From assembly GCA_030272585.1 (NCBI GenBank), contig BSYQ01000008.1, positions 3,410,001 through 3,474,000 on the forward strand: 64,000 bases of DNA. Direction: 5' to 3'. Numbering within the stretch: the first letter of the stretch is position 1; each line of letters begins with the position of its first letter. Source of the DNA: Bryopsis sp. KO-2023 (Eukaryota; Chlorophyta; Ulvophyceae; Bryopsidales; Bryopsidaceae). The notes under the pieces are model-generated. The model was not told the DNA's origin. It saw only the letters and a program-made list of their open reading frames with translations, and did no database searches. This document shows, one piece after another, positions 2,555 through 56,500 of this stretch. The translations under genes and the position numbers were made by a program.

Positions 2555-4458
2555 TCACATTTTATCCTCCGATCTCAAATACTCCCCACAATCGGCTTGA
2601 TGGAGAGCAACGATTCCAGTGGGGTCCAGATTTCGACAATCTGAGGTGGACTTCACCGTGATTCCGAAGCCGATGGGGACTTCGGCCATGTTGTAGATGA
2701 CGATGCCGACATTCGCTGGCGTGTTTTCAGTGATTCGACCCAGGCCTGCCTTCAAAACGTGGTTCCCATACAGGAAGTTCAATTCGGAGGATGGCTTCAG
2801 CCACAACTGCGATCGATAACACACAAGAGCCCTCGTCAGGGGTGAAACAAAAGCAACATGTATGTATTGGATCGTCTGTAAGGCTGCCGGTAGCATCATG
2901 GTCAAGCTACGGAAAAACTGGAGGGTTGAAATGCTACATGCTGATGGGAATCCCTCAGAAGAAAAGTGAGATCCGAGTTTTTCTACATAAAACACGAAGT
3001 TTTTCAGATTGAAGGCCGGTTTCTTCATCATAGGGGTTGCCTAAAATAGACCAGGGATTTCTCCCCCTTCTTTTTTTCCCCCCAAACACTGGGCTAAGGA
3101 GAGGAACTATAGCCTAACCCATGCAATCATTGTGAAAGATGCGACCGCCTCAGTGGAAAGTTGAAAAGAATTTTCACCCTCATCCCACGAAAAACACAGT
3201 CAGGGTCGAAAAAAATGGATGACATCACAGGGAGTCGAACATCTCAATGAAAAAGTCTGACATGAGGTTCAGCAGTGGCGGTTTGTATTGGTTTGATTCG
3301 TGCCAGGCGGTTCTCCTCATAAATCAGTAGAGGGAGCCGATCTCATCATCACCTCAAAACTATTTTACCCCACCCACCCCCCAAATAAAAAAACAACAAA
3401 AAAAAAAAAAACGAAGTACATATCTGTTTTCAAATGATGTACTGGTGATACACCCTGGTCCCCTAGATTTCATTATTCAATCTAATATTGATCGACAGGA
3501 ATTCACTGCAAAGTTGATCCAAGAAAACGACACGGTTGCCCTCAGGTGAAAGAAGACCCATTATAACTCATCAGGAGATCAGGGCAAGAATGTAATCGCA
3601 TCACAGGGCATTTACCGCTAATCGTGGATCTAAACGTGTCAAAAATTTCGTTTGCATGTAGCGAAGAAAAAAGTGTTTCCTTTTTGGAAAGAAAAAGGAA
3701 ACACTTTTTTCGGGGCTGATCAATCCTGCCGTCTGCACTCGTTTAACGCACACAGCTCAAATCGAGGGGGCCTACCTTGTACCTGGCATGCTTCGACAGT
3801 AGATCCAGGGCCCCTATGGTTAGATGAAAGCGATTGCTGTGGGTCATTTTTCCTATGCATGTCCCCATTCCTACCAGATGCTCTCTACCGACCTACATCA
3901 AAGGATTTCCATGCTGAGCTTGAAAGACTTGATCGAAAATTCCAAACTTGGCTGCACATATATATATATATATATATATATATCATGAATCATGACTCAA
4001 AATGGTGGGTGGTTCTTCGACAACGCAGCATCTCAGATCGGAAAAAAAGGGGAAAAAAAGAAAAAAAAAAAAAAGCGGCTCCTCCGTGGCGCAAACACTG
4101 ACCAGATCGGACTCACGTTGGTGGCCCTCTTCATTATGACCTCCTTCACGTAAAACACCTTTCCTTTTTGGAGGCGAAAGCAGTACTTGTCGTCGGGCTG
4201 GTCGACGATCGACCCCAGATTCTTGCCGACATATTTGTAAAGCTTTTCAAAGACCAGTCTGGCCTCCTGATGCAGACAAAAAAAAGAAACAGAAACATCA
4301 AAACCCAGTCGCTTCAGAGAAAGGCGAAAAGTTTTCAACAGCAAATCAGTTCGTGCAGGTTGGGGGTGCCGGCTTGGTCAGTCTGCTGAAAAACGAAGGG
4401 AATTATTTCACTTCTCGCTTTTTGCGCTGTTTTTCACCTCTTCGTTGAGCGGCCGCAT
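2555..4458 (-). CDS. NIP7: 60S ribosome biogenesis protein NIP7 homologue
   Basis: Four exons on the minus strand: 4458-4438, 4266-4117, 3892-3776 and 2806-2555, all phase 0, giving 179 residues, the usual NIP7 length. The start MRPLNEEEARLVFEKL matches the family N-terminus (MRPLTEEE...VFEKL). The segment KYVGKNLGSIVDQPDDKYCF and the exon-3 motif MGTCIGKMTHSNRFHLT are the N-terminal domain. The last exon holds the C-terminal PUA domain with FLYGNHVLKAGLGRITEN and the terminal HQADCGEYLR. NIP7 is known as a nucleolar/nuclear PUA-domain RNA-binding protein needed for 27S pre-rRNA processing and 60S assembly. The third intron is long (969 bases) and contains a perfect hairpin. The gene is head-to-head with the HCF164-like gene, with 547 bases between start codons. 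Exon 3 has no start codon of its own and was found by reading the family pattern through the intron. Confidence 0.95.
3666..3711. repeat. Perfect 20-bp inverted repeat (hairpin) in a NIP7 intron
   Basis: Left arm 3666-3685 and right arm 3692-3711 are exact reverse complements (20 of 20) around a 6-base loop. The arms are purine/pyrimidine-biased, centred on GTGTTTCC and GGAAACAC. It lies inside the last NIP7 intron, about 65 bases downstream of the exon-3 donor, so the unspliced RNA would form a stable stem. Confidence 0.8.
3957..3984. repeat. (AT)n microsatellite
   Basis: A run of alternating A and T of about 26 bases lies within NIP7 intron 2, between exons at 3892 and 4117. Confidence 0.9.
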
Positions 4459-21039: not shown

Positions 21040-24000
21040 ATGAATCAATGGACACAGTTTCGAACGTTTCATATTTTTGTTATCTTGATCGTCGCCAGCG
21101 ACGGTGCTACCCCGAATGGCGGCACGTTTCATGCAGTGATAGGGCAGGATTCAATCGAGGAGGTTCTGGCCGAAATGGAGGAAGGGGGGATATTGACGCT
21201 GGTGTACGATCGAGCAGTCACCCTGCTTGATACCGTTGTTGTCGACAAAGCTGTTACGATTCAAGGTCGAGGGAAACAGGGCCCGCTGCTCACTTGTGGT
21301 GCTGGCGGCGCCGCCTTCGACATCGCATCGCAAAAAATTCAATGCACTTGCGTGCAAGTGGGGCTTCAAGTGCCACTTGCATTCCACTTGCACGCAAGTG
21401 CAACACTTGCAGCCCTACTTGCACGCAAGTCAATCACTTGCATCCCACTTGCGCGCAAGTCAATCACTTGCATTCCACTTGCACGCAAGTGAAAGCGCTT
21501 GCAGCCCCACTTGCGCGCAAGTCAATCACTTGCATTCCATTTGCGCGCAAGTGAAAGCACTTGCGGCCCCACTTGAACGCAAGTGAAAGCGCTTGCAGCC
21601 CCACTTGCGCGCAAGTGGAATCGCTTGCACCTCCACATGCAAATTCTGCAGACAATGCCTATGACCGACTCGATCGTGGCCTCATTGTCCGTGTGCCCCA
21701 ACCGTTTTGGCACTCCTCAGATGTCGGAGTGGTTTTTGCCGCCGAACGCGAGCGAGAAGGAGGTGGTGAGGAGGCGTGGCCATAAACCACACAAAGCGCG
21801 AGGAAAAAGAAGGATCGAAGAAACGCTTTATTTTGCTTTTCCTAAACCCGACACGATCCCAGGCATGGAGGAGAGTTCGAGGGTAGCCTGGCTGGGGCTG
21901 CGCATTCGTTAAAAGTACTGTGGAAGGCGGTGGCGTCGCTCTCCGATCGTTCGGTGTCGGCTCTTCCCATTGAAGCGCGAGGATGGACATATGAAAGGTG
22001 TTGGAAAATCTGTCACAGTTACTGAACTTGGAAAAGTTCCAAGGTCTACACTGAGTTGGTGAAAACCAGCATGTATTGGAATCAAAATTCAATGACATGT
22101 GGGATGTGGTGGTTGATGGCCTTTTGTTGTTGCCTTGTGGTGTGTGTAGGATTGTTGATGGTTTGGACATTCCAACAACAAGTTTCCTGCACCGTTAGGA
22201 GGGGCACCTGTTAATTCAATGTGCCAGGACAAGCTAGGGAAGAACTGTTGCCATGCAAGCTGTCTTGTACTCTGAGATATTTGTGGTGTGCAATAGTGTA
22301 GATGTTGGAGAAAAATACCCCCCCCCCCCCGAGAAATGCCCTATGTTGACCATGCCCAGGAGCCAGTTCTCCACGAGCCTGAAGATGAAGTTTCAGGAAG
22401 CGTCAATGCCATGTGAGGTGCTTTTCAACAGTATTTACTTTGAAGTTAATCGTACTCAAAAAGTTTGCGAAGGAAAAATGCATAGGAAAAAATGCAAGAA
22501 TACTGTCATGAAGCACAGCATGTTCGATGCCTGAAAACAGAAAAACTTTATTTAAAAACAAGAAGCCATCTACAGTAATTGGACGACCCTGGCGAGGTGA
22601 ACAGCCTTAGCAAGACCCGCAAAGTATTGAATTTTTGTTTTATTTTGTTAGAGTTCCAAGGTTAATAAAACATATGGCAATTTGTGTTCATATGTAATAG
22701 TAGTAATAGTCCTATAATGGATGTTTGCCATACCAAATTCAATACTGATGTTTGAATGCATCTCCAGGAGCTTTAAAAATTGCGAGGTCTTTGAAAACTG
22801 CTGGGGGCCAAACGTTGGAGAACATGGAAGAATATCTTCATGAAAAGCTTCATTCTGTTGGAAGATATAGGTAATCTTAACCGCACTCATCTCCCCCCTC
22901 CCAAAAATGAAATCCAAAAATAATAAGAGAAAAAATAAAACTAAATAGAGATCAAATAGTGACAACAAGTATCAATTCTTTGTTGTGCCTGTATCCCAGA
23001 CACCTCAACCCTGAAAGGTAAGCTTACTCTCGTACTGTGATCCGGCACCAATGTCTGCACTTTCCTAGCAACAGCAGCCAGCGTCAGAGAATGAATTCTG
23101 CCACTAGGACAAGCTTTTGCAGATGAACAGCCTCAGGTGATGGGTCTTAGTCCAGGAGGGAAACTCAAGAATTGCAAGGGCTGCAAATTGGAGGTGCTCT
23201 CTGTGGAAAAACCACCCCAACCACGCAGCTGTGGGGTTGATCGGGAAGGCTTGTGGTAGACTGGAAACGAGCTGATCGATTTTAAAGGGTTAATCGATCT
23301 TTCATGATATTGAAATACCAAAAAGGGAGGAGAATTAGTCTAAGAAATTGATGGTTTGTGGGAAAGAGAAAGAAACTTTTTGAAGAGGCATGTGGCGCAG
23401 GGCTGGGTTCGACTCCTGGCAGCCTGGAGATTTCAGATTTAATTGTATGTGATAGACGTATTTGTATGTAAATGAGATTGTAATGAATAGATGTGGATGT
23501 TTGATAATGCTCAATTGTTTTAGAATGGTGCTGTAATAGTTTGAACGAGAAAATAATTAGGTGATTCATCCTCCACAGATTTCCCACTTGCAAGCAAGCG
23601 GGTTGGCAAGTGAGCACCCACTTGCATGCAAATGACAGTGCAAGTGAACGTCCACTTGCAAGCAAGTGAGACAACAAGTGAGCGCCCATTTGCACGCAAG
23701 TGATACAGCAAGTGCCCATTTGCACGCAAATGATACAGCAAGTGCTTGTGGGCGTTACCAACCACTTGCCCGCAAATGACTCTGCAAGTGGCCGTGTCAC
23801 TTGCAATCCACTTGCCCGCAAGTGCCACTTGCTGTATTATTTGCGTGCAAGTGACAGCGACAAGTGGGTTGCATGTGGATTGCAAGTGAGCGAATTTTTT
23901 GCGATGTCAGGTGAATTCGCCGATTTTCACCCAACCGCACATGCAGTGCAACGGCTCATCCGAGGCCACTTTGGATCAAGCGTTAAGCTTGTTTCCGTTC

Positions 24001-27000
24001 GTAAAACGCTGGTCAAGCTCGACCGTTGGTACTGCGGCGTTATAAACGTAACTCCAAGTCTTTGATACCGCCCCCCAGAGGCTGTGGGCAATCTGGAACC
24101 TGTTTGCACTTGAGAAGGTGTGTGGGGTGCCGCACACACTTCCCCAATCGTACTTACAAATATTTTTTACAACATGTTGATGATAAGAAAGAAAACACTG
24201 CTTTATGGACAGATCTGATGGTGTGGTTTTGAAGAACATGGCGATCGATGGCTGTTCTCCTCATGCTGTTGTTTTGCATTCCATGCCAGTGGAAGACCAA
24301 GCATCCACCGTGCAGGTAATGGCAGATCAAAAGGTCAATTAATGCATGAGGTTTCTGCGAACACCTTGTTGCACGCTTATCAACTTTTCGCGATTGATGA
24401 TGTTGCTGGGACTGGGTCTCAATTAGAATCCCCCAGCGCTGGTCCTTTTCGAATTCCTTTTTTTGGTGTCAAATGGCAGATCGACAGCCTATCGATCACC
24501 AACCATGGTGGAGGTGTGCATTATCGAAAGACAAAGGGTGGTCGACTGCGGTTGGAAATTTCGAATTCCGTTTTTGGAAATGGCACCAAGGCAGCAGTGT
24601 CCTTGGAGGGAGCAGAATCGGTCACAATATCGAACTCCAATTTCTTCAACACCACTGCGGGGGCGGACAGGGAAATGGGTGGCTGCGTCAATTTTTTATC
24701 GGTCCCCAATGTTCAACTGAAGTCGAGCAACTTTTCCGAATGCAGCGCAAAACATGGTGGGGCCATTTCTGTTACGGATAACTCAGGAGAGCTCGATCTG
24801 TGGTCAGTCACAGTTTCGGACTGTCAGTTCGAAAGGAATCGGGCAGATCTGAGGGGAGGGGGACTGCATGTGGAGATGAGCTCCCAGGGAGCGGTTGCAA
24901 TCGAGAGTACGAGGTTTCAAAGGAACCTCGTCGTTGATCAAGAGAATAATAATATCATGCAAGCACTGGGTGGGGGCGGGGTGTATGCAGCACTACTGAC
25001 AGACCCAAGGGGTGGGGGGGCTCCGGAGATGGATGTTCGAATTGAAGGCTCATATTTTGACGGAAATGCTGCACCGAAGTTGGGGGGTGGCTTGTTTATG
25101 TTGGATGTGACGAGAACACAGATAGAATCCAGTAATTTCACCGAGTGTAAGTCTGCTGAGGGGGGTGGGGTTTGGTCACAAAACAAGGGAAGGGCTAATG
25201 AGTGGGCCATCGAAGTGTGGAATTCATATTTCGAAGGCAATATGGGGATGGAGTCGGGGGGAGGCCTTGCAGTGAGAAGCGAGGTGGATGGATCGATTGT
25301 TGTTGGCCACTCAGAATTTGTCGATAACAAAGGGGGAGTCCATGGAGGAGGGATGGCAATCAGTCAATCAGGAGGGGGAGATGTGAGGGTACGCACCGCC
25401 CATTCGATTTTCAAGGGAAACTCTGCTGGATACGGTAATGGGCTGTCTTGCAAAAACATTGGGTTGGTGGAGCTCAGTTGGACGTCTTTCCTCCACAATC
25501 ATGCGCCAACTGACAAGATTCATGGGGTGGGCGGGGGAGGAGCCACATTCCAGGAAGTAGGAGCGTTGAATATTTCTAGGAGTCTGTTTCTGAACAACAC
25601 ATCGTCCGGCAATGGTGGTGGCTTTAACTATTTACCCGCAAGAAAGCCCAGTTTGTCAGACAGAGCTGGATGCCCTGACCGGCCTTGGGTCAACCTGATG
25701 CATGTCACATTCAAAGAGAACCGGTCCCTCAGAAAAGGAGGTGGATTATTTCTCCAAAACCATTGTGCATACTCGGTCGAAATTCAGGGAGCAGAGTTCA
25801 TTCAGAACAGGGCATTCGGCGATGGGGGTGCTGTGGTGGTCGATGGAGAGGTGGACATGTGGATGCGTTCGTCCCTTTTTTTGGGGAACTTTGGGGAAAT
25901 GCATGGAGGGGCAGTAAAACTGGACGGTGGAGATCATCATATCAAAAGATGCAAATTCTCTGACAACCAAGCAGGGATGGGAGGTGGTGGCATCAATTCT
26001 CAATTTGCTCGTGAGTTTTCTTCTCGTTTGTTTCCTCAAATGACCGATTTCCAGATGTCCCAGATACACTTTAGGATTTGTGCGGGTTTTTTTTGGATCC
26101 CCGCACAAACACTCAAAACCCCAGGACACACCCAACATAAACCGGTTTTTCTATATATATATAGTGGTGTTGTGGTGAGGGGTGGAGCATGTATCTATAT
26201 TATATATTTCTGGATTTTTCCCACTCCCTCCTCCCCTAAGAATAAATAATGCAACATTGATTGAACAAACAAGGTATTGCAACAATTCATTGAACAAAAA
26301 AGGAATAAAAAAAGATGACTAAAAAATATATATATTAGAATTTGTTTTTGAATATTCTTTCATTGGCCTGATTGTTGGAATTTGTTTTTTGATATTTTAC
26401 TTTTTTTTCAAGAATTGTTTATAAACCATTAATTATCTGGGATATTTTGCTAGTTGTTTTGTTTTTTTCACTCTCAGAATAGAAACAGATCATCCCACAG
26501 CACATTCCCCCCTCCCCCCATGGTTCCTCACAGCAAATCTTTGCCCCTTCTTTTTTTTTTCAAGTTAAAAAAAAGACACTGAAATGCTGTAGCCCAAAAC
26601 AAGTTTGTTTTAAATCCGACTGGTGGATGTATTTCTATTTTATTTATTTACTTTTGCTCCACAGGGTCTGTATCTGTTTTCGATTCTCACTTCTTTGGCA
26701 ACAATGCCACCTATGGTGGTGCCTTTACAGCAAAAGACAGCCAGGCCAGACTCATAAACACCACGGCGATAAGAAACTGCCATTTTGAGCGAAATTGGGC
26801 TCTCGGTGGGGGGGCCATCTGCGTGACCGCCATGCAACACATGGTGTTAGATAACAGTACGTTTTTGGACAACTCAGCCTGTCTGGGGGGTGCGGTACTG
26901 TTTTCTCCTGGGGAAATGCCAGAGGTCCAATGCTACGTACACGACTCCTTTTTCAAGGGAAACAAAGCCTACATCCCAGATCCGCAACTATTGGCGAACG

Positions 27001-30000
27001 TGACTCCGGACGTGGCGGCGTACACAGATTTCATTGGTGGTGGCGGAGCTGTGGCAATTCTCAATCGAGTAGCAGGGGCGGGGTGGGACTTCTTGCGCTG
27101 GACAATCAGATTTTTGTCTGATACTTTTGAAGAGAATTCAGCGGTGAACGGGGGTGAGTGTCAGGATTTATGGAAACATTCCAAAGCAAATTCCCTGTCC
27201 AATCCCCGCCCGTCCGGGCCCCAGTGCTCAACCTCTGCATGAATAGATCGTTACTCGCGTGTTTGTCATGTCAGCAGGGGCCTTGCTGGCACTTCTCCCT
27301 AGGACGGAATCCATCACCTTGCATGATTGCCGTTTCGCAGACAACTGGGCTTGGCAAGCGGGCGGAGCCGCCCTTGTGGACGATGCCTCCAAGGTCGAAT
27401 TCCGTTGCGCACCCGACCACAACTCGACCGCGCTCGCCACTGCCGACATAGGGAGTTGTGACGCCTTGCTGGGCAACAAGGTCAAATCCTTCTTGGAGAC
27501 CGATCTTGGCGACGATTTTGCGACGTTGGCGTTGGGGAGGATCAGAATCGACCCCCCTCGGATTGGAAAGAAGTTGAGCAGGCCAAGCTTGCCAGATATC
27601 ACGGTGACGGTGTCGGATATGCAGGAGAATGAAAAGATTCAGGGAGGCTTTGGACAGGCAAGAGAAGTCGCCGCTCATATATATCATATATTTGACTGTG
27701 TGTGTCACCCGTGTTTATCCAGCAGATACACCCAAGGAGAACGCACCAAAACTAACGATTGGCGTTGTATGGCTACCAATACTGTCAACTGCCTCTATGA
27801 TGAATTTTTTTATATTGCAAATGAGCGAAGGGAAGCAGTTTGCTGGGCGGCATCTTCGCATGTAAATCATATTTGTTTTTGTTTGAAAGAAAACAGCTTT
27901 TGGGTTTGTTGTGCAATCAGGTGGAATTGAACTTCACGGCGGCGTCGCCCGACATCACACTGGTTGGCAACACGCGCGCCAGTGTTGTGAACGGGACCGC
28001 CACGTTCAGGGGATTGATATTGCTGGGTCTTCCTGGCGTCCACACGCTAATTATCACAGCCACCAGTGTGGTAGGCTTGTACAATGCGGGCAGCTGGAGT
28101 GCGCAACTGGAGGTGGAGCTCCGTGAATGCGCGATCGCGGAAATAACCGTCCAACAAAACCCCAGCACCACGCAATGCGAGCACTGCCCCCCCACTTTCT
28201 TCTCGTTCAATGGGAGCGCTGAGTGGTGTTCGACCTGCGTTGCAAATGCGAACTGCTCAGGAATTCCACATCTCCACCCCTTTGTTCCAAACAAGAACTA
28301 CTGGCATTCCAGCCCGTTTTCCCCTCAAATCCATCTGTGCTTGCATCATTCGTCGTGCGACTACCCGGGTCGATCGGAGCAGCTCCAGGCTTTCTTTGCG
28401 GAGAAGCTTCCCGCACCTGGGACGCACTATGGGCAAGATGAGTACCCTCTTTGCGCACAGGTTGGGATGAGTTGCAGACGTGCAGTCTGTCATAACAACA
28501 CAAAAAAACAGTTTTTCAGTTTCTGTGTAGGAACTGGATCGTTTGGAAATTTGCCTGCAGGCCATTTTCAAACCACCAAACAGATCCCCATATCGCTCCT
28601 TTTTAAACTGGCGGATTTTCATAAGGTGTCTTTGATGAGGTGTATTTTGAGGAAGCGTACGTGGAACAAACGTACGATTTGTTGAGCTCCACCTTGTGAA
28701 GCCGTGTTATTTTTGAGGGGGGGGGGGGCGTTTTGCTATTCACAGGGCAGCAGTGGACCTTTGTGTGGCTCGTGCGATGATGGATACGGACATCTCACGA
28801 TTGGGAAATGCGTCCATTGCAGCTCGAACACATGGGCTCGGCTCAGCATACTGTTCGTGATTTCCTGCACTGTTTTGTTCGGCGTTTTGATAACCCGAGC
28901 GAATCTGCCTCGCAATGATGACGATGACCAGTGTGTGGAAATGGGTGTGTTCCACAATGGTGTGTTTCACCCGCCGCCGCCTGTTGACGACCAACCCAGG
29001 CCGATCGACATCATCAAGGCAAGCTTGCCTTGAGCTTAAGCTCGATGGAGGAATGGCTTTGATCTTGAGAGTATACCAGTGTGTTTTATTTTCATCGATA
29101 AGAATAGAGAAAACGATATGTGTTTTCCTGTGGAGACAAAAAAACTATTGGGGGGGGAGAGGGGTTTACGGATGGTGTTTGCTTTTCCTTGCTTGTTCTG
29201 GAAAAAAGATGCATGTCGGTGTTCCTGCAGATTGGCATAAATTTCTTCCAAGTGAATGCGTTTGCACTGGTGCTGAGTTTCGGCTGGATGAATTTTGCTG
29301 AACTCCTGCTCAGGATACAAGGTACAGTTAAAAACGGTGTGGTGGTTAGCAGAAGAAACCCATTAGCTGAATGAATAACATGCAAATGAATTTCTGGCCG
29401 CCTTTTTCGTTCGTCCGCAGCTTTTTTAGCTCGCGCCAGCGCAGGAGGTAGCGTCCTGGTTCCAGAGTGCGCATTCCCATTTGGGAAGAATAAAGCCATA
29501 AAGGTTGCTTTTTTGAATGCGGCCACTCCCTTTGCTTCTTCTGCAACCGCTGCGGGGCTGTGGTACCTGATCGCCAGAAGAAATGGCGCTCTACAGTCTA
29601 TCCGCCTCCATCTCCAGATCCTTGCCTGGTCTTTTGCATCCTTCACGTACATTTCCTTGACCAGAGTGTTCATGGGAATGTTTTATTGCCCTGAGGTGGA
29701 CAACGATGTGGGTGATTTTGCCGGTTATGCGGTGTTTAAAGGCCGTTACTGGGGTTGGGACACTCGATTCAAGTGCGGTGAAGGTGGCAGAACTCTCCAT
29801 TTAGTCGTAGGAGTCGCGGGATGTACCATTTTCTCCATAGGTTTCCCTCTTTGCCTGACGTTTTTTCTGTTTAAACACCGGCGGACACTGGAGGAGGCAG
29901 AGTTCCGCACATCCTTCGGCTTCTTGTACGCAGGGTACAAGAATGGAACGGCCCATTGGGAGGCTGTGATCATGTTGCGGAAATTTTCGATGGCAGGCGT

Positions 30001-30514
30001 GGACGTTTTCGCTCGCTTGCTTGGCGTTGGGCTTCAAGGATTTTTCATGCTGGGGGTGATGATCATCGCACTTGCCTTGCAATCGCTGTTCAATCCTTTC
30101 AGATCGGACCTGCTCAACACCATCGAGACCATGTCCCTCGCCACGTCGAGTCTGACCTATTTTGCGGGCGCCCTGTTTCACTACCCCCATATTTCTGGCA
30201 TCAGCGAGTGGATCTTTGGGATGCTGGTAGGTCTGACGAACTTGAGCTTCACGATTTACCTCATCTACCTGGTGCGTCATGTCGTACCAACCTGCCTGGA
30301 ATGGGTGCGAGACCAAGTGTTGGAGATGTGCAGAACCTGTAGCATATTCTGCCGGAACTGCATGGAGTGGTTAAAAGCCCATTTTTTGGAGCTTTTTGGA
30401 ACTTGCCGTGGATTTTTCGCAAGCTGGGGAGTCAGTCTCCTCTTTCTCATTCTCACCATCGGCATCCTCGTAGCTTTCAGTTTTTGCCGCCTTCTGCCTT
30501 CCTCACGCTCTTAG
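21040..30514 (+). CDS. Paralogue A: Pmp-repeat, Cys-rich, multi-pass surface protein (exon 1 carries an insertion)
   Basis: Nine exons: 21040-about 21324, 24213-24315, 24480-26010, 26665-27153, 27278-27657, 27921-28460, 28746-29018, 29231-29321, 29421-30514; about 1,595 residues if the insertion is removed. A signal peptide (HIFVILIVASDGA) is followed by a beta-helix lead-in (VDKAVTIQGRGKQGPLLTC). Exons 3-5 hold many GGG-[AGV]-type polymorphic-outer-membrane-protein repeats with FxxN/FxGN turns, a secreted right-handed beta-helix. Exons 6-7 form a Cys-rich module (CEHCPPTFFSFNGSAEWC; PLCGSCDDGYG), then the first membrane span. Exons 8-9 form a polytopic domain with RVFMGMFYCPEVD, GFLYAGYK and EAVIMLRKFSMAGVDVF. 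Ligand and function are unknown; cell-surface sensing or adhesion is inference. Introns 5 and 7 use GC donors (27658, 29019). A 2.58-kb transposon lies at the end of exon 1, so expression is in doubt. Confidence 0.85.
21343..21640. repeat. Left palindromic array, unit about 30 bp containing CACTTGCGCGCAAGTG
   Basis: Roughly nine units alternate a half-site (CACTTGCATTC or GCTTGCAGCC) with a full 16-bp palindrome CACTTGC[AG]CGCAAGTG. Spacing between full palindromes is close to 30-33 bases. The array remains open in all plus frames for about 150-250 bases and encodes repeated short peptides, which is a by-product of its repeat length. Confidence 0.9.
23580..23890. repeat. Right palindromic array of the same element
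   Basis: Degenerate CACTTGC/GCAAGTG half-sites and palindromes (for example CACTTGCAAGCAAGTG, ATTTGCACGCAAGTG) at irregular 20-40 base spacing. It mirrors the left array but is more diverged. Confidence 0.85.
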
Positions 30515-31794: not shown

Positions 31795-32222
31795 GGGGGG
31801 GGGGCCAGATGTGTGTTTTCTGTATCGGTCTTCCTGGATCAGTGTTAGAGCTTCCCAGCCATGTCCAAGCTAGTTGTCCACATTTATGTATATTTGTCCT
31901 CCTCCCCCCCATTGTTTTATCACTCGCGTAACGGCACTTTTACCCAAATCATACCCATTGCATACCCAAGTACCCAAACAATACCCAGCAAGTACCCAGA
32001 CCGTACCCAGCATTGGGTACGTTTTGGGTAATTACCCACCTCACTACCCAAACTGTACCCAAACCGTACCCAATCCATGCCCAATAGTGGGTAGAATTGG
32101 GTAAGTACCGCACACATACCACATACCTATGGTAAGCGAGATATGCTTGGTATGCCGTGGGTACGCTTTGGGTAGTACCCAATGCTTACCCAAAAAATTA
32201 TAGGGATGGGTACGTGTTGGGT

Positions 32223-32658
32223 TTATGGAAAAAACTGGCTCGAAGTACCCACCCCAACACAACCACACAGACACTCCAAAAAATCATTCATTCAACCTTT
32301 AAAAAACTGTCCCATATGTTCGAAAATCGAATATGCCTTTGTCCGAAAGAGATTACCCCCTATACAAAATCCTCATTCATTTCCCTGTAACTCTCTTTTC
32401 CCCGTGCAGGACTTAAACAAAAAACTGCACAAAATCAAAATACCAAAGAAAAACGGGCCGGGTGGGCGGGAAAAGCAAAAAGGTGGCGAGAACATAAGGA
32501 CAACGCCTTTTAAAGCCACAAACTAGAACAGGGCGCACGCTGCCCCAAACACAAACGCAAGCGCTGCCACAAATGCGTCAGCCGCGGCTGACTGTGCCAG
32601 CAAAACCCGCCCAGTACCGATCCAGTCCATAAACTCATGAACTGGAAGTTAATAACAT
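32223..32658. repeat. 436-bp dispersed repeat, copy 1 (inside the CACTA-like element)
   Basis: Nearly identical to 35784-36223, from GGAAAAAACTGGCTCGAAG to GAACTGGAAGTTAATAACAT. On the minus strand it contains a terminal-exon-like segment, 32641-32523, preceded by ttccag and ending in TAG: it encodes EFMDWIGTGRVLLAQSAAAD... and ends GAACALF. This looks like a captured 3' exon of a membrane protein that is not otherwise in this window. Confidence 0.85.
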
Positions 32659-34922: not shown

Positions 34923-35265
34923 GGTCCCAAAGAAATTTGAATGAGGGATGTTGCTTGTTTTGATGTGCAAAAATATATGCACTTGTATGCATTTGGAGGT
35001 AGAGGGCTGGTTGTGAATAGAGGAACAAGTGTTCTTGTAAATTATTTCTTATTTGTGATTTTTGTTGTGTTGGGCAGATTGGGTCTGAACTAGACACCAC
35101 CCGATTTGTACCTGATCTATAACAAATGATTGACAGCGGGTGGTTGCTCAAAGCGTACCCAATAGATACCCAATATGCGTTTATGGGTAAATATAGGGTA
35201 CTTTCTGAAAATACCCAATACATGCCCATTCAGTGTGGGTATGTATTGGGTACTACCCAATTCAT

Positions 35266-35517
35266 ACCCACCAACTTTGGGTATCTTTCGGGTACTACCC
35301 AATTTGTACCCACCAACTTTGGGTATTTTTTGGGTACTACCAAATTCGTACCCACCAACTTTGGGTATCTTTCGGGTACTACCCAATTTGTACCCACCAA
35401 CTTTGGGTATTTTTTGGGTACTACCAAATTCGTACCCACCAACTTTGGGTATCTTTCGGGTACTACCCAATTTGTACCCACCAACTTTGGGTATTTTTTG
35501 GGTACTACCAAATGCGT
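35266..35517. repeat. 42-bp tandem repeat x6, arranged as three 84-bp dimers
   Basis: Six head-to-tail 42-bp units start ACCCACCAACTTTGGGTAT. Odd units continue CTTTCGGGTACTACCCAATT and even units TTTTTGGGTACTACCAAATT, giving an alternating higher-order repeat. Every unit contains TACCCA and TGGGTA in opposite orientations. It forms the right subterminal part of the CACTA-like element. Confidence 0.92.
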
Positions 35518-35783
35518 ACCCAACGAGCTCGACAACTACCCAATCCATACCCAAATCATACCCATAGAATACCCAACTGGGGTATACCCAAATATACCCC
35601 AAATTACCCAATTCATGCCATTAAAAAACGGGTAGCCCGCGGGTAGTTTTGGGTATGAATTGGGTAATTTTCGTAACGTGAGTGTATCAGCTTGAAACAA
35701 GAAACTTTCTCTCTTTTAAAATTTACGTAATTTTACTTTTTTCAAATCTTACAGGGGTCGTCTGGGGGCCAGCACATTCAAGA

Positions 35784-36223
35784 TTTACGGAAAAAACTGG
35801 CTCGAAGTACCCACCCCCACACAACCACACAGACACTCCAAGAAAACTGTAGAAAACATTCATTCAACCTTTAAAAAACTGTCCCATATGTTCGAAATCA
35901 AATATGCCTTTGTCCGAAAGAGATTACCCCCTTTACAAAATCCTCATTCATTTTCCTGTAACTCTCTTTTCCCCGTGCAGGACTTAAACAAAAAACTGCA
36001 CAAAATACCAAAGAAAAACAGGCCGGGTGGGCGGGAAAAGCAAAAAGGTGGCGAGAACATAAGGACAACGCCTTTTAAAGCCACAAACTAGAACAGGGCG
36101 CACGCTGCCCCAAACACAAACGCAAGCGCTGCCACAAATGCGTCAGCCGCGGCTGACTGTGCCAGCAAAACCCGCCCAGTACCGATCCAGTCCATAAACT
36201 CATGAACTGGAAGTTAATAACAT
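35784..36223. repeat. 440-bp dispersed repeat, copy 2, inserted in the duplicated exon
   Basis: The second copy of the 32223-32658 sequence. It interrupts the duplicated membrane-protein exon between TTCAAGA and CATTACGATGGG; in the intact gene these read TTCAAGAGCATTACG. The same minus-strand terminal exon is present (36206-36088). I see no clear terminal inverted repeats; any target duplication is at most a few bases. Confidence 0.82.
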
Positions 36224-39571: not shown

Positions 39572-41588
39572 ATGGCAAACGATATCAAAGTACTGGGAGT
39601 GGTGAGGGAAAAAAGCGTCTTCGTAGGAAAAACGTGGCTTTATGCTGGAAATGAGTTACACAAGCGGCGGAATGAAGCTGTCGAAAACCCCCAACTTCCT
39701 GGATGAGCGAATTCTCTTCAAGAACGATAACCTTATCGGTGCAGCATCCCCGTACCAGTTCTAGCGAGCTCGACACAACCGCCTAGAACAAAGCGCGCGG
39801 AAAATTTGCGCGCAAAAGTCGATACCAATACTGAGCAAGCTAAACGCTTCCCCAGGCCTATCAACCCCACCGCTCCGTCCCCAGAGATCTTCGAATATAC
39901 AGCTGTCTGTTCGACAAAGGGTGGAGTTGTTTCTGGTAGTCGGTCGGAACCTTCGCACACAGGTTGAACTGGCGTTGCTTGACAACGGAGGGCGGAAAAT
40001 TTTTCCAACTGGCAGCTGGAATCAAAATATCCAAGAGTTGGAAGTCACTCCGAAGCTGGTGGCGTTATGACGGACCGGAGTGCGCATCCAAATCATTGGG
40101 TGCATTTCCATCGCTTCTGTGTCTGTTGGAATTCAGGTGGATAATGTGTTTGAGAAATCAATGTAATTGATGTTTGTTTGTTTGTTTGTCTTTGAGAAAT
40201 TCGCAATAATTTTTTTTTCAACATTTGTATCTATTCCTGCATCATGCAGGCTGATGGCTCCCTTTTGCTGTGGGTTATATTGATTGATTGATCGACTGAG
40301 AATGAGGGACTTTCCCTTTTCCTTTTCTTTTTTTTTGGGGGGGGGGGAGGGGGGTGTTGGGGTTGGATTTCTGTTTGTCGATTCAAACAAACCAGTCCGG
40401 TTGAAAAACGGTGGCATGAAAATGAAATTCATCAACAATAGCGATTGAAAAAAAAAGAAAGAAACAAACAAACGTTAAAGATCTTCAAAGCATACATCTA
40501 GAATAATATTCTTCAGTAATTTTCCGAATCAACCAGCATTCAAGCAGCCCCCTCCCCCCCCCCCCCCCCAAACGATGTAATAGTACTCACAAATGCTCCT
40601 GAAAATCTAACAGTAATGCATACCCTGCTTTGGGTAAAACTTTCGCACCACTGTGTTGATTTTTTGTTTCTTCTTAATTTAAAACCACATTTTCCTTCAT
40701 TGTTTTTGGAGGGAGGACTAGAATGAAACACATATTATTTGAACGAAAACGACACCTTATTTTTTAATTTAAATAACCCCACCTGTTGAATTTTTCCTTG
40801 GGATGTTGGAAGTGGTGGTCAGTATTTGAACCAGCCTGGCAATAGACACGAATTTCAATTCAAATTTTTACACACACATGCTTGCAGATGGATTGCAACA
40901 TGTATTCTCTAGGTGCCTGATTAAGAAAATTATCGTTCAACATATCACAATATATTTAAGGCAAAGTGCTCAAGTATGTTTTTTTTCCTTCTCATCCTCC
41001 CCCCCCCCCAAAAAAAAAAAAAAAAAAGATGTTAATGCAATTTCATATTCAATTCTTTTACACAACACCAAAACGTCGACGAATTCAGTAACGAAACTAT
41101 TGCAATTTTTTTTAAAAAGTTTTTCAAAGAGGGGAGCAACAGAGCAGGTAAGAAAAGCACACGAAAAGAAAAAAAAAAAAGGAGAAAAAAGACAAGAAAA
41201 CAGGGCAAGCGGTGCGACAAAGTAGCGCAGCTCGACTCGCCCCATCGCAGAAGCGCTCGATCCTCCAACTGGATTCGTGTTTTTCACTGGTGAACGACCA
41301 ACTTAGTCATTTTGGAAGGAGCAATCCAAACATGACCACACCCATGCAACGCTGAAAACGCTCGGAACGCTCGGGTGCCTAATAGTCCGCTTACTGATCT
41401 GCTCAGGCTGGACAGGGCTGGATTACTGGCTGCTGTGGGGCGGACGCTTGCGACATGAAAGGTGCATCGAGACAAACTCGTAACGTGGAAAGGTTTGCTC
41501 AGTACTGTAAGGACCGTTGAACGCTTTCTTCTACGGCAGGGTTGAATCGCCAGAAACCACAGGAACGTATTCGAATCGAAGTGGAAAG
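39572..41588. other. Intergenic region without supported genes
   Basis: Between the CRAL-TRIO gene and the first GNAT gene. Frames near 39733-40170 are open on both strands, and a donor-like GTGGATAAT follows a plus frame at 40135, but no product emerges. It contains a (GTTT)n tract (about 40170), a long T-G run junction (about 40330), a C-run (about 40550) and a C-A junction (about 41000). Confidence 0.45.
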
Positions 41589-42350
41589 ATGGACCACAAC
41601 CAGGCGAAAGGACGTCCAGACGTGATCGACGATGTGGAACTGGCCCGGCGATCGATGGACACTCTCGGTGAATTCTTGGCACTGGTGGGTGAAGGGGTAG
41701 CGCCAAAGTCGGTTGTTCGACGGCCGGACGCCGTAGGAGCGAGGTTCGACGACAGACTGTGCCCCAACTTCTTCAACTCTGTGGTTGTGCCCAGCGGCGC
41801 ACAACCTCCTGTCAAGGATCCAGGCTCGCACTATGTGTGGACATACGCCGACGCCGTCGCTGGTCGCGTTTTGGACACCGATATGGTGCTTTTGGCAATG
41901 GGCGTTAGACTGGACGACCCTGCCTTGAACCTAGACGGCGCTGCGACGAACGTGGAAGAACTGTCTCTCGAAAGGATCTCTACGATCAACCAACGGGTGT
42001 ATTCCGCGTCGTTCCCTCCTGTCGCCAGAGGGATCTATTTTCTCTTGTCAATAAAAGATCCTCGCGTGCGCGTGTACGGGCTGCGCGTCGACGAGGAGGT
42101 CGTATGTGTGACGATGACGGTGTCGGTTGGCGACGAGTTGGGCATTGAATTTGTGGCGACGGAGGAGAAATACAGGCGTCGCGGCCTGGCGACCAGTCTG
42201 CTCAAATGGATCCTGGCCAACGGTCAGAAAGAAGGAATGCGGACCGCGACGCTGCAAGCGACTTCGGACGGACGACCTGTGTATGAACGTGTGGGTTTTC
42301 GAGAAGTGGCCACGGTGCGCGCCTATGTGCGCCCAGTACTGGTGAACTAA
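41589..42350 (+). CDS. GNAT-family N-acetyltransferase, tandem copy 1
   Basis: An intronless frame of 253 residues from ATG 41589, the methionine that aligns with copy 2. The C-terminal half has the GNAT fold: LRVDEEVVCVTMTVSVGDE (strands), then ATEEKYRRRGLATSLLK, the acetyl-CoA-binding Q/RxxGxG/A motif on the strand-4/helix-3 turn, and the closing RPVYERVGFREV. The N-terminal half (VIDDVELARRSMDTLGEFLA; RRPDAVGARFDDRLCPNFF) is shared only with copy 2 as far as I can tell and may set substrate choice. The substrate is unknown. The gene is GC-rich in AT-rich surroundings and lacks introns, so bacterial origin or retroposition is possible. Confidence 0.85.
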   Translation: MDHNQAKGRPDVIDDVELARRSMDTLGEFLALVGEGVAPKSVVRRPDAVGARFDDRLCPNFFNSVVVPSGAQPPVKDPGSHYVWTYADAVAGRVLDTDMVLLAMGVRLDDPALNLDGAATNVEELSLERISTINQRVYSASFPPVARGIYFLLSIKDPRVRVYGLRVDEEVVCVTMTVSVGDELGIEFVATEEKYRRRGLATSLLKWILANGQKEGMRTATLQATSDGRPVYERVGFREVATVRAYVRPVLVN

Positions 42351-43292
42351 GTTATATATAACAAGCGCGCCTGCTTCCCTGCTGTCAATGCTTGCACAAT
42401 TTCCAGTTTTTCCAGTTTTTTTTCTCATTGTGTATTTTTTTTTGGTCAAGGAACGGGGGAGGATATTTTTTTGTCTTGATTGCGTTTTGCTTCTTAACCG
42501 AAGGAGGGGTTGTTGGAAAAAACAAAGCATTCTTTCCTGTTTCTTTTGTTGGAAGAGAATAAGGTGAACAAACGAGTTCGAGAAATAGAATCAGGGATCA
42601 ATAAGATACATCAACTTGAGAAAGAAAACAAGCATATCTGCTTAGATTTTTGAACGGACACACGCTGTTGATCACCTTGCCAAGCAGGGCCCGCTCATCC
42701 CTTCCAACCTCAAAAGCATCCTCTTTCTGCTGTTGTGACTTGTTTGTAACTCAGCCGACTCTCTCCTCCCAATTCCAAAACTGACTAATATACTTGCGGG
42801 TGCTACCTCGGATCGAAACAACCGTCATGCAAGATACGACCACCTCATTCCCTGACATCCGTTCACACCATAGATCCTTGTGACCATCAAAGGGTTCAGT
42901 CCATATGACTCATCATCTTCTCATCATACCTCGCACTGCGATTCTGCATGTCTGTCGATCCTCACGGCTATGCAAGAGAGAGAGAGTGGTTCTGAACACC
43001 GCCAAAGGAAACTCAAAGAAAACACAGTGAGAGAACGAGGGACTCCCTGTCTGACAGGTTTTTCAAGCCATAGCTCGAGGTGGAAAACAAAGTGCTGCGA
43101 TGCGCGGGACTGTCGCAAACACAAATTCGAACCATCCACAACCTCGACTTAGAACCGCCGTTTTCCGTTACAAAACGCCAGCATCGCTGAGCAACATCCA
43201 ATTAACCAATGAACCATACTTTTTTTGTGGCTGGCGAACTCGCAGATTTTACCCAACTGTGGAGCGCATTTGAACCAAATAAACGTCGAAAT
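42351..43292. other. Spacer between the two GNAT genes
   Basis: About 0.9 kb without a supported gene. It includes a second in-frame ATG (43209) that could extend copy 2 by 28 residues. An AG-rich short tract (AGAGAGAGAG) lies at about 42975. Confidence 0.4.
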
Positions 43293-44099
43293 ATGGTCGA
43301 CAACGTTACGAAAGAGGTTCCAGACGTGATCGACGATGTGGAACTGTTGCGGCGAGCGATTGATAGCTTCGGTGAATTTTTGGCACTCGTGGGTGAAGGA
43401 GTGTCGCCAAAATCCGTCGTTCGACGGCCGGACGCCGTAGGAGCGAGGTTCGACGACAGACTGTGCCCCAACTACTTCAACTCTGTGGTTGTACCCAGTA
43501 ACACACCGCCTCCTGTCGAGGATCCAGGCTCGCACTATGTGTGGACCTGCGCTGACGCCGTCGCTGGTCGCGTTGCGGACACAGATATGGTGCTTCCGAT
43601 CATGGGCGTCAGACTGGAGGACTCTACTTTGAACCTAGACGGCGCTGCCACGAACGCGGAAGAACCGTCTCTCGAGAGAATCGCCGCAATCAACTTCGAG
43701 GCGTATTGCGCGTCCCACGACGGAGACGCCCTGGTCGCTAGAGGAATATATTTTCTCTTGTCAATAAGAGATCCTCGCGTGCGTGTGTACGGGCTGCGCG
43801 TCGAGGAGGAGTTTGTTTGCGTGGCGATAACCTTGCGGGTTGGTGAAGACTTGCACATTGATTTTTTGGCGACGGAGCAAAACTACAGGCGTCGTGGCCT
43901 GGCGTGCAGTCTGATAAAAAGCATCCTGGTGAACGGTCGGAGAGAAGGGATGCGGACCGCGACACTCCTAGCGACTTCGGACGGGCTGCCTGTGTATGAA
44001 CGTGTGGGTTTTCGACGAGTTGGTGTGATTCGCGCATACGTACGGCCAGGGAAAGAAATAGAAATCCTGGGTGATGCAAAAGCGCATCTGCCTACCTGA
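43293..44099 (+). CDS. GNAT-family N-acetyltransferase, tandem copy 2
   Basis: An intronless frame of 268 residues, using the ATG that aligns with copy 1; an upstream in-frame ATG at 43209 would add 28 residues. It is colinear with copy 1 throughout, with the same core blocks RRPDAVGARFDDRLCPNYF, DPRVRVYGLRVEEEF, ATEQNYRRRGLACSLIK and LPVYERVGFRRV. It has a C-terminal extension (GKEIEILGDAKAHLPT) and a small insertion (HDGDA) absent from copy 1. Within the central block the DNA is nearly identical over about 50 bases, while flanks and third positions have diverged. This fits an ordinary tandem duplication rather than a very recent one. Confidence 0.85.
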   Translation: MVDNVTKEVPDVIDDVELLRRAIDSFGEFLALVGEGVSPKSVVRRPDAVGARFDDRLCPNYFNSVVVPSNTPPPVEDPGSHYVWTCADAVAGRVADTDMVLPIMGVRLEDSTLNLDGAATNAEEPSLERIAAINFEAYCASHDGDALVARGIYFLLSIRDPRVRVYGLRVEEEFVCVAITLRVGEDLHIDFLATEQNYRRRGLACSLIKSILVNGRREGMRTATLLATSDGLPVYERVGFRRVGVIRAYVRPGKEIEILGDAKAHLPT

Positions 44100-53566: not shown

Positions 53567-56500
53567 ATGGTACGATGCCCGATTCAAGCTCTCTTAATTT
53601 TCCTTTCCTTGATCGTCGCCGCGGGCGCCGTTGCTCCAAAAACCACCTTCCGGAATGCCACGGTGGGGCGGGATTCCATCCAGGAGGTTCTGGCGAAAAT
53701 GGAGGAAGGGGGGGTGTTGACGCTGGTGTACGATCAAGCAGTTACCATTCTTGAGACCGTCATTGTCGATAAAGCGGTCACGATTCAAGGTGGAGGCAAA
53801 CAGGGGCCCCGGCTGACTTGCAGAGGTGGCGGCGCAGCCTTCCATATCAGGTGAATCCGTTTAGTACTGTTCAATCGGAGCTTTCCTGTCGATCGGGCGA
53901 TTGAGAGCGGCCAACGAATTGGAGTACCCCAATTGAATAAGCGTACGTCATTTTTACACAATGTTTCTATTGTTTATCTGGACAGATCTGGTGGGGTGAT
54001 TCTGAAGAACATGGCCATTGATGGCTGCTCTTCCCATGCAATAGTTCTTGATTCATTGCCAGCAGCTGCTGCCAAAGACCAAGTGCCAACTGTGCAGGTA
54101 AATAAAAAAGATGACAAGGCTTGTTAGTCCACACAGGAATGCACCCCTTGCAGAGATATAAACCGAAAATTTTGGATGTGTTGAAAGTACAATATAGGGG
54201 AGGGTTTTCCTGCCCATCTCCCCCTGAACTCCCAGAATTAGATGCCCACATGTCCAACTGTTACTTGTAATCCCAGCTAAAATAAGAACTGAAACGGTCT
54301 CCCTAGGATTTGAACCCTGACCACCAGGATTCCAATTAAAATTTGATTGGTTGTGCCAAGTTCTTTTTCACCCCAGACTAATCCTGGAATCAGTGAAGTC
54401 GAGACTAAACAAGTAAAAAAACAACAGATTGATTTGGAAGAATCCATGGCTGGGGGCGGTGGGGCCTTCATATCACTGGTGACAGATGCAAGGGTGGCAG
54501 ACGGATCGGGAGGGGGTTCGGAGATGGATGTCCAAGTGATCGATTCTTATTTCAGTGACAATCACATATTGGGTTTTGGTACGGGCATGGCTTTGTGGGG
54601 TACATTGGGGGGGATTACTGGCGGCGGAGGTGCTGCATTTCAGCAAGTGACATCGTTGCACATTTCCCGGAGTGTTTTTCTGAACAACACATCACCCAGG
54701 GCTGGGGGTGGCCTTCACTATCTCATGAGAGAGAGGACTTCCTCCGGCAGAGTTGAGTGTCCTAACACACCTTCGGTAATCTTGATGAATGTCACATTCA
54801 AAGAGAACAAACTGATTGAGCCGTCTCACTTTGGTGAGGGAGGTGGGTTGGCTCTACTCAGCGAGTGTGCCTGCTCGGTTAGAATGCAGGAGATGATGTT
54901 CTTTCGGAACCGTGCAGAACGGGGGATGGGGGGTGCTGTGTTTAGTGGGAGGCAGATAGACATGCACATGCGATCGTCCATTTTTGAGAGCAATTCTGCC
55001 GAGATGGAAGGAGGTGCCATCTACCTCTCTGAAGGAGATCATGATGTTGAAGGATGCAAATTCTTGTACAACGAATCAAAGTATCAAGGAGGTGCCATTC
55101 ATGCTGAGTCTTCCGGTGAGTTTTCCTTGTTCCCTTGAAAAGTTGTGAGGTTTCCAGTATACCGAATAGCAAAAGTATGAAATTTTCAAAAAGTGATTAT
55201 TAAATTGCTGGCAATATTCCTATCAGTGGAAGATAAGATCCTGCTTTTTTTTGGGGGGGGGGGGCTATTGCAGGGTCTTTGTTGGTTTCCGACTCCCGCT
55301 TCTTTCGCAACGCAGCGGAAGATGGGGGGGCCGTGGCAGCATTCGATGGGGAGGCTCGACTGAAAAACTCCAGTTTCGAGAAGAACCTGGCACTCGGTGG
55401 GGGAGCCATCTATACATCAGGGCAATCCTTGAGAATCCTTTACAGCACGTTTTTGGAAAACGAATCACATCTGGGTGGTGCCGTGCTGTTCTTTTTCGAC
55501 GAAATAGCCGGGGTCGACTGCTTCATGGACGATTCTGTTTTCATGGGCAACGTAGCAAAGACCCCCACTAGTAGTGAAAGGGAAACCGGCCAGCACCTGA
55601 GTCCAGAAGAAAACTGGCAGAGATATTTTATCGGTAGTGGTGGAGCTGTGGCAATCATCAATCGATTGGGCGACACGACGTCGACTGGGTCATTGGGCGA
55701 GCGGCCCAGGTTGATCTTCGACACCAATACTTTCGAAAGGAATTCTGCAGTCAACGGAGGTGAGCGTGTTTGTGTCAGGATGGCATATGTCTGTGCATAT
55801 ATATTTGTGGCATTCGAATATCGCCACAACGACCTTTTCACCATCATGAGTCTCTTTGCTTTATGGGAAGAATATTTCCCAAAAAACATCCCGACTAAAT
55901 ATATCACGGCAACGAATTCTTTGAGCGGGCACACACGCAGCCCCCAAACAGTTTCCTTGTTTTCCTCCACAGGGGCCTTGCTCGCAGCTCTGGCGTCCGA
56001 CCAATTCATCAGTTTGGACGCATGCCGTTTCGTGCACAACTCCGCAAGCCAAACTGGTGGAGCGGGCGTTGTGAGGCAAGACGAATCGGTTCGATTCAAT
56101 TGCGGGCCAGAGCAAGAGAGAGCCCCGCTTTCCGCCATCGCTGTGCGGCAATGCGAAAATGTGCAAAACAACACCGTCACTTCCTCCGTCCACGACAATT
56201 TGGGCGACGATTTTGCGACCTTGGTGTTGGGCGGTGTCCAGATAGACCCCCCTCGGATTTCCAAGAAGCAAAGCAGGTCGACGTTGCCCAATATCACAGT
56301 GACGGTGCTCGACATGCTGGGCAACAAGTGGACGCTGGGGGGCGTTGGACAGGCAAGCATGTTCCATCCCACACTGTGGCAGCCCTATTTTCCATGGACA
56401 GCGTTGCGGTCCAGTTTGCATCAGCATTTTGATACGGAAAACATAACAGAATGGCAGTGCTTTGTTTCGCAATCAGGTGGAGGTCGCAATAACAACACCA

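What the first reader, a model, noticed from the sequence alone, without database searches (positions are those of the whole stretch)
21325..23906. Transposon inserted exactly at a 5' splice site, defined by its paralogue
Paralogue B gives the empty site. In A a 2.58-kb element with exact 15-bp terminal inverted repeats lies between codon ATC and the TCAG|gtgaat donor. The natural donor is now separated from exon 1 by 2.6 kb. Splicing could adopt a donor inside the left palindromic array (for example GC|gtgcaag near 21350, or AA|gtcaat in the array, the latter in the needed phase 2). The element would then become part of intron 1 and the protein would change by only some residues. This would be a live case of a DNA transposon being intronised, similar in logic to introner elements.
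Basis: partly seen in the sequence, partly recalled or inferred. Interest (0 to 1): 0.85.

Follow-up and report, generated by a model that had tools for sequence, protein, structure and literature searches.

The report
Jumping gene beside a splice site
A recently inserted, non-autonomous DNA transposon sits two bases inside the end of a gene's first exon in a green seaweed; it belongs to a known transposon group, it probably cuts the first exon off, and a possible rescue by splicing remains untested.

Summary
Observation confirmed. The 2,581-bp element (21326-23906) has perfect 15-bp inverted ends; two paralogues, B and C, show the empty site. The genome is Bryopsis sp. KO-2023. It holds 14 paired copies; 12 of 14 have a 2-bp target duplication, and this one has TC/TC plus a stray G. 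A 10.1-kb copy carries a Plavaka transposase (PF18759, E 1.2e-25); the window element is a deletion derivative of that type. It inserted recently (2,486 of 2,519 aligned sites identical to its nearest copy), at ATC^AG|GTGAAT, two bases before the donor.

Intronisation is not shown. The public model of A (BSKO_09446) omits exon 1; B's uses it. In 11 of 14 copies tested, the family shows no excess of in-frame splice potential (0 of 33 copy-frames). New detail: the element's T-rich right end turns the old AG|GT donor into a strong acceptor-donor (recursive-splice-like) junction, the best of 213 such sites on the window's + strand. Its use is untested.

The parts
21040..21324 (+). exon 1 of paralogue A (95 codons; N-terminus hydrophobic by eye, like a signal peptide), cut off by the element; its last two bases AG now lie at 23909-23910
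   Evidence: core A vs B dS 0.447, dN 0.111
21323..21324 (+). left copy of the 2-bp target duplication (TC)
21325..21325 (+). one extra G between duplication and element
   Evidence: absent from B and C
21326..23906 (+). non-autonomous Plavaka-type DNA transposon, 2,581 bp
21326..21340 (+). left terminal inverted repeat CATCGCAAAAAATTC
21345..21641 (+). left subterminal array of CACTTGCNNGCAAGTG-like palindromes
21489..21490 (+). best in-phase cryptic donor CAA|GTGAAAG (score 6.3, phase 2), overlapping the first in-frame stop (TGA at 21490)
23583..23853 (+). right subterminal palindrome array
23892..23906 (-). right terminal inverted repeat
23907..23908 (+). right copy of the 2-bp target duplication (TC)
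23895..23916 (+). junction TTTTTTGCGATGTCAG|GTGAAT: acceptor-like (12.9) directly followed by the old natural donor (9.3), recursive-splice-like
23911..24212 (+). original intron 1 of A
   Evidence: corresponds to B 53851-53985
24205..24207 (+). ATG at which the public model BSKO_09446 starts, inside the end of original intron 1
53567..53850 (+). paralogue B exon 1, with the empty site ATC^AG|GTGAAT at its end

Best explanation
A non-autonomous, internally deleted member of a Bryopsis Plavaka (CACTA-like) family was moved in trans by a transposase-bearing relative. It landed by chance in exon 1 of gene A, duplicating TC, two bases before the 5' splice site. Shown: element, ends, duplication, family, empty site. 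Inferred: mobilisation in trans, chance landing, and the effect. Reading on from exon 1 meets a stop 165 bases past the insertion (TGA at 21490), so the normal A protein with its hydrophobic N-terminus is most likely lost, while the exons downstream are still open because the insertion is recent.
For: 31 exact TIR hits; 14 paired copies, 12 of 14 with a 2-bp duplication; Plavaka transposase in the 10.1-kb copy C2:395957-406053; W matches that copy in blocks and lacks its transposase region; W and L012 identical at 2,486 of 2,519 aligned sites, 74 gap columns; empty sites in B and C; public model of A without exon 1, of B with exon 1; none of 52 candidates (83-263 aa by the tool's length rule) matched A exon 1 plus array at E <= 0.001; another copy, L017, interrupts a 1,096-aa frame whose N-terminal piece has a DUF4470 domain.
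Against: No RNA data. Public models are predictions; a missing exon 1 may only mean that the predictor did not bridge 2.7 kb. Proteins longer than 263 aa were not screened for A exon 1 as such. A fair in-phase donor (21489) and a high-scoring junction acceptor exist. A shows purifying selection in the three stretches tested (dN/dS about 0.23-0.29), though that mostly predates the insertion.
Confidence: 0.72

Rival explanations
1. The element is spliced out as part of an enlarged intron 1: donor CAA|GTGAAAG at 21489 (phase 2) to the natural acceptor at 24212, adding 54 residues, either in one step or in two by way of the acceptor-donor junction at 23910/23911.
For: Donor 21489 scores 6.3, within the range of 20 modelled donors (1.3-10.0) and above the 95th percentile of window GTs (5.84); junction acceptor 12.9 against 4.9 for the same AG in the empty site, and the best summed score of 213 AG|GT sites on the + strand. 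A dSpm (CACTA) intron in maize A2 is in print (title seen in the reference list of PMC4219821).
Against: The highest-scoring donor before the stop is 21358 (6.5), in phase 0, which would meet TGA at once in exon 2 (ATC TGA). Intron 1 would be 2,724 bp against 121-654 bp for 20 modelled introns. The natural acceptor scores only 3.7. The public model of A does not use exon 1.
Confidence: 0.17
2. A is still expressed as a shortened protein from a promoter in the element or in intron 1, starting at ATG 24205, without the N-terminal leader.
For: The public model starts exactly there, and its later exons are open.
Against: No promoter or transcript evidence; at this place B and C have CTGGACAG where A has ATGGACAG, so the start is not conserved and may be a predictor's choice.
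Confidence: 0.08
3. The insertion is on one haplotype only or is an assembly artefact.
For: Only one assembly could be seen, without reads.
Against: Perfect ends, a 2-bp duplication and 13 further paired copies speak against an artefact; heterozygosity cannot be tested here.
Confidence: 0.03

Closest known systems
PlavakaB DNA transposons of fungi (CMCT clade; PMC12730594, passages seen)
   Same: Plavaka transposase domain; 2-3 bp target duplications; CATC..GATG ends
   Different: Published ends are CATCA..TGATG, here CATCG..CGATG; host is a green alga; subterminal palindrome arrays were not mentioned in the passages seen
EnSpm-Plavaka elements of the green alga Auxenochlorella (PMC12633428, one passage seen)
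   Same: Plavaka-type cut-and-paste elements in a green alga
   Different: Sequences not compared here
En/Spm (CACTA) elements with subterminal repeats, e.g. soybean Tgm elements (PMC4219821, PMC2613891, passages seen) and the maize dSpm intron in A2 (title only)
   Same: Subterminal direct and inverted repeat arrays, deletion derivatives, and a precedent for a CACTA element forming an intron
   Different: Ends are not CACTA, duplication 2 bp rather than 3 bp; splicing here is not shown
Introners (PMC9860276, passages seen)
   Same: DNA transposon with inverted ends inserted in an exon; a 3' splice site could be part element, part duplication and exon
   Different: Introner families there have median lengths of 30-654 nt and sit as introns in many genes; this family is 1.8-3.0 kb (11 short copies) and shows no such pattern in the proxy tests made

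Membership tests
Plavaka (PlavakaB) | Plavaka transposase in an autonomous copy | tested here: met
   PF18759, 90.9 bits against cut-off 26.3, profile positions 1-234 of 325, in ORF 1 of C2:395957-406053; found again by the family search. W itself has no transposase.
Plavaka (PlavakaB) | 2-3 bp target duplication | tested here: met
   12 of 14 paired copies have at least 2 identical flanking bases; W has TC/TC only after leaving out one G; the C2 copy has none
Plavaka (PlavakaB) | termini CATCA..TGATG | tested here: inconclusive
   CATCG..CGATG here, four of five bases; definition from a passage of PMC12730594
Plavaka (PlavakaB) | C(2)C and H(3-4)H motifs between second D and last E | tested here: inconclusive
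   CVQC and HNEGH stand in ORF 2 of the C2 copy, read by eye; catalytic residues not aligned; ORF 2 alone has no Pfam match
En/Spm (CACTA) proper | CACTA terminal bases | tested here: not met
   ends are CATCG
Introner | splice sites at or near the element ends, so that copies in exons become introns | tested here: inconclusive
   0 of 33 copy-frames (11 of 14 copies) allow an internal in-frame splice at donor >= 4 and acceptor >= 6; random window segments mean 2.27, sd 1.82, so no excess, but no significant lack either. W alone gains a junction acceptor.
Introner | many copies at intron positions in coding exons | tested here: inconclusive
   Donor or acceptor score of 8 or more within 6 bp of the site: 1 of 14, background 3%. 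Proxy only: no gene models around the other copies
Introner | element found as a spliced intron in RNA | not testable with these tools
   no RNA data at hand

The most novel reading that the evidence does not exclude
The insertion turned a 5' splice site into a recursive splice site: the T-rich inverted end plus TC of the duplication, placed before the exon's own AG|GTGAAT, makes a strong 3' splice site with zero exon length before the old donor. The spliceosome could join a donor in the left palindrome array to 23910, rebuild a donor, and splice again to exon 2, removing the whole transposon and keeping A in frame with 54 extra residues.
Probability: 0.07. Interest if true: 0.65.

Novelty: new member of a known kind. 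Interest (0 to 1): 0.3.

Why it matters
It describes a Plavaka family in Bryopsis, a green alga, with one transposase-bearing copy and several non-autonomous derivatives, and a clean, recent insertion next to a splice site with two empty-site paralogues. If RNA showed splicing, it would be a natural test of how a transposon can be tolerated by making a recursive splice site.

Tried and rejected
Introner-like family: not supported. Internal in-frame splicing, donor >= 4 and acceptor >= 6: 0 of 33 copy-frames in the canonical direction and 0 of 33 antisense; Markov controls mean 1.2, random window segments mean 2.27 (sd 1.82). At donor >= 6 and acceptor >= 8: 0 of 33 and 0 of 33, controls 0.2 and 0.745. 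Scored were 11 of 14 paired copies; the two large nested copies and the C2 copy were left out, and TC was used as the duplication for every copy. Zero is no excess; with these controls it is not a significant lack.

Preference for splice borders: not shown. Scores of 8 or more within 6 bp: 1 of 14 (background 3%); 6 or more: 3 of 14 (background 8.3%); 4 or more: 6 of 14 (background 25%) (acceptor scores were lowered by 1.5 there). All three lie above background, but the numbers are small.

Long frames across the empty sites: L017 (1,096 aa) and C2 (1,156 aa, low-complexity proline-rich). The background was drawn from the same loci, so it is inflated by these frames (95% point 1,096) and gives no P value; the L017 claim rests on the uninterrupted frame and the DUF4470 hit of its N-terminal 346-aa piece (the 750-aa piece had no Pfam hit at E <= 0.01).

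An element-derived start codon (ATG at 23904) was considered: its phase at the donor is 1, so exon 2 would be read out of frame (read).

Splice scores rest on 20 introns of three public predicted models, 14 of them from A and B themselves. B's donor, identical over the nine scored bases to A's natural donor at 23911, is in the training set, so the 9.3 is flattered; B's homologous acceptor is in it too. GTs in A exon 1: five score above 2, none in phase 2.

Literature: no paper held both 'recursive splice site' and 'transposable element insertion', nor 'recursive splicing', 'transposon' and 'ratchet' together. The Bryopsis genome paper was not held, so its annotation method is unknown to me. 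Nine papers hold 'Plavaka' and 'transposon', eight were listed; no listed title names Bryopsis.

Full report
What is there. The window lies in contig C8 (3410001-3474000) of a 91.1-Mb genome in 28 contigs. Two of its genes match, at 100%, the public proteins BSKO_09446 and BSKO_09453 of Bryopsis sp. KO-2023, on a contig of the same length as C8 (6,109,207 bases). Between exon 1 and intron 1 of gene A lies a 2,581-bp element, 21326-23906, with perfect 15-bp inverted ends CATCGCAAAAAATTC and arrays of CACTTGCNNGCAAGTG-like palindromes inside both ends (17 matches with up to 2 mismatches, 0.27 expected).

The empty site. Paralogue B reads TTCCATATCAG|GTGAATCC. A third paralogue, C8:3495632 on the minus strand, reads TTCGATATCAG|GTGAACCC. 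A reads TTCGACATC, then an extra G, then the element, then TCAG|GTGAATTC. The insertion therefore fell between ATC and AG, with TC duplicated, two bases inside exon 1. Two more distant homologues (L048, L049) have other sequence at this place. The public model of B splices at exactly this donor in phase 2. Joining the flanks of A gives the same phase, ATC AG|A TCT, checked by eye (the script's own joined translation carried one base too many at the acceptor).

The family. Exact ends occur 31 times in the genome, the reversed pattern once. End-specific patterns, with up to 3 mismatches allowed, gave 15 left and 16 right ends. They pair into 14 copies: 11 short ones of 1.8-3.0 kb including W, two large ones of 17.3 and 24.7 kb that hold other sequence, and one of 10,097 bp at C2:395957-406053. 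Three further ends are single (C6, C9, C11), and one exact TIR on C5 fits neither end pattern. Twelve of 14 paired copies have at least 2 identical flanking bases, with varied dinucleotides; W has TC/TC if the stray G is left out, and the C2 copy has none. A search with the interior of W found one other near-full copy (98%, C2:7197898, the same copy as L012) and partial matches elsewhere. The C2 10.1-kb copy carries an open frame matching Plavaka (PF18759) at E 1.2e-25, followed by two more frames at distances fitting introns (inference). W aligns to it in blocks at 84-91% identity and lacks about 6.8 kb between positions 316 and 7100, where those frames lie, besides smaller differences. W is thus a deletion derivative of such an element. 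Nineteen stretches of the genome match Plavaka; the search rang in none of 14 control genomes.

Classification. PMC12730594 (passages seen) gives PlavakaB 2-3 bp duplications and CATCA..TGATG ends; ours are CATCG..CGATG. Plavaka is already reported from a green alga, Auxenochlorella (one passage of PMC12633428), and from the protist Amoebidium (passages of PMC11244446). So this is a new member of a known kind.

Age. W and its nearest copy L012 agree at 2,486 of 2,519 aligned sites, with 74 gap columns. The A-B split is far older: exon 1 core dS 0.447, two later stretches 0.75 and 0.93 with dN 0.215 in both. A was under purifying selection for most of its history; at the age of the insertion only a few changes are expected in exon 1, so the lack of decay there says little.

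Effect on A. From ATG 21040 the frame runs 165 bases past the insertion point to TGA at 21490. The public model of A starts instead at an ATG inside the end of old intron 1 (24205) and has no exon 1, while B's model has it. I therefore think loss of the normal product is the likeliest outcome, but predicted models are weak evidence and no RNA could be examined.

Could it be spliced out? I trained donor and acceptor matrices on 20 introns of three public models, 121-654 bp long; 14 of the 20 are from A and B, and B's donor equals A's natural donor over the scored bases. Seven GTs lie between the insertion and the stop. Using 21489 would add 54 residues and give an intron of 2,724 bp. One result favours splicing: the right inverted end reads TTTTTTGCGATG, and with TC and the exon's AG it makes an acceptor scoring 12.9, against 4.9 for the same AG in the empty site; 7 of 3,385 AGs on the + strand of the window, itself included, reach that, and with the old donor (9.3) it has the highest sum of 213 AG|GT sites there. 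Such an acceptor-donor junction is what recursive splicing uses (recalled knowledge). One junction cannot show more than possibility, and I looked for this pattern only after seeing it.

Is the family introner-like? Eleven of the 14 paired copies, three frames each, were tested for an internal in-frame splice: 0 of 33 in the canonical direction and 0 of 33 in the other, against a mean of 2.27 (sd 1.82) for random window segments: no excess. Splice-like sequence at the insertion points of 14 copies is at or somewhat above background, with small numbers. Copy L017 sits in the middle of an uninterrupted 1,096-aa frame whose N-terminal piece has a DUF4470 domain. A landing near a donor is best seen as chance. 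A rough estimate, assuming about 85,000 introns in the genome (my guess, from no call), gives about a one-in-four chance that at least one of 14 copies falls within 5 bp of a splice site.

Precedent. A CACTA element forming an intron is in print: Menssen et al. 1990, seen only as a title in the reference list of PMC4219821. The abstract of PMC4219821 itself (passages seen) reports accurate splicing of an intron holding a 13-kb CACTA element. So even a positive RNA result would extend a known phenomenon; the recursive-site route would be the new part.

Noticed in passing
L017 (G000:C4:4694394-4701299), element at 2501-4406: A 1.9-kb copy of the family interrupts a 1,096-aa open frame with a DUF4470 domain; the frame is continuous once the flanks are joined with one CT.
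   Followed up: partly
L009/L030, G000:C2:395957-406053: The only paired copy of this family in which a Plavaka transposase was found; it lies in or beside a long proline-rich low-complexity frame and has no visible target duplication.
   Followed up: partly
G000, 19 places: Further Plavaka transposase stretches, some in look-alike sets (e.g. four hits in 631-aa frames, each with one TAG), suggesting other Plavaka families in Bryopsis.
   Followed up: no
L014-L016 (C3) and L022-L023 (C8): Copies of 24.7 and 17.3 kb hold long frames that look by eye like Ty3-type polyproteins and hAT-like or MULE-like transposases, i.e. other elements nested in this one; those frames were not searched in a family library.
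   Followed up: no
L022:2-1600: Just outside the C8 copy, a frame with integrase and chromo domains, as in Ty3-type retrotransposons.
   Followed up: no
window 52218-53075 and 60029-60839: Inverted repeats (two blocks, 92% and 87% identical) flank gene B on both sides; a close paralogue lies inverted about 32 kb further on (C8:3495632).
   Followed up: no
window 41581-42336 and 43285-44049: Direct pair of GNAT acetyltransferase-like genes, 82% identical (only the first was searched in Pfam).
   Followed up: no
window 35236-35522; 32222-32658 and 35784-36223: 42-bp tandem array, with a 94% identical direct repeat on either side.
   Followed up: no
window 29033 and 29390-30514: The public model of A ends at 29033, but an open frame 74% identical in DNA to B's later exons follows; the model of A is probably short at its 3' end too.
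   Followed up: partly
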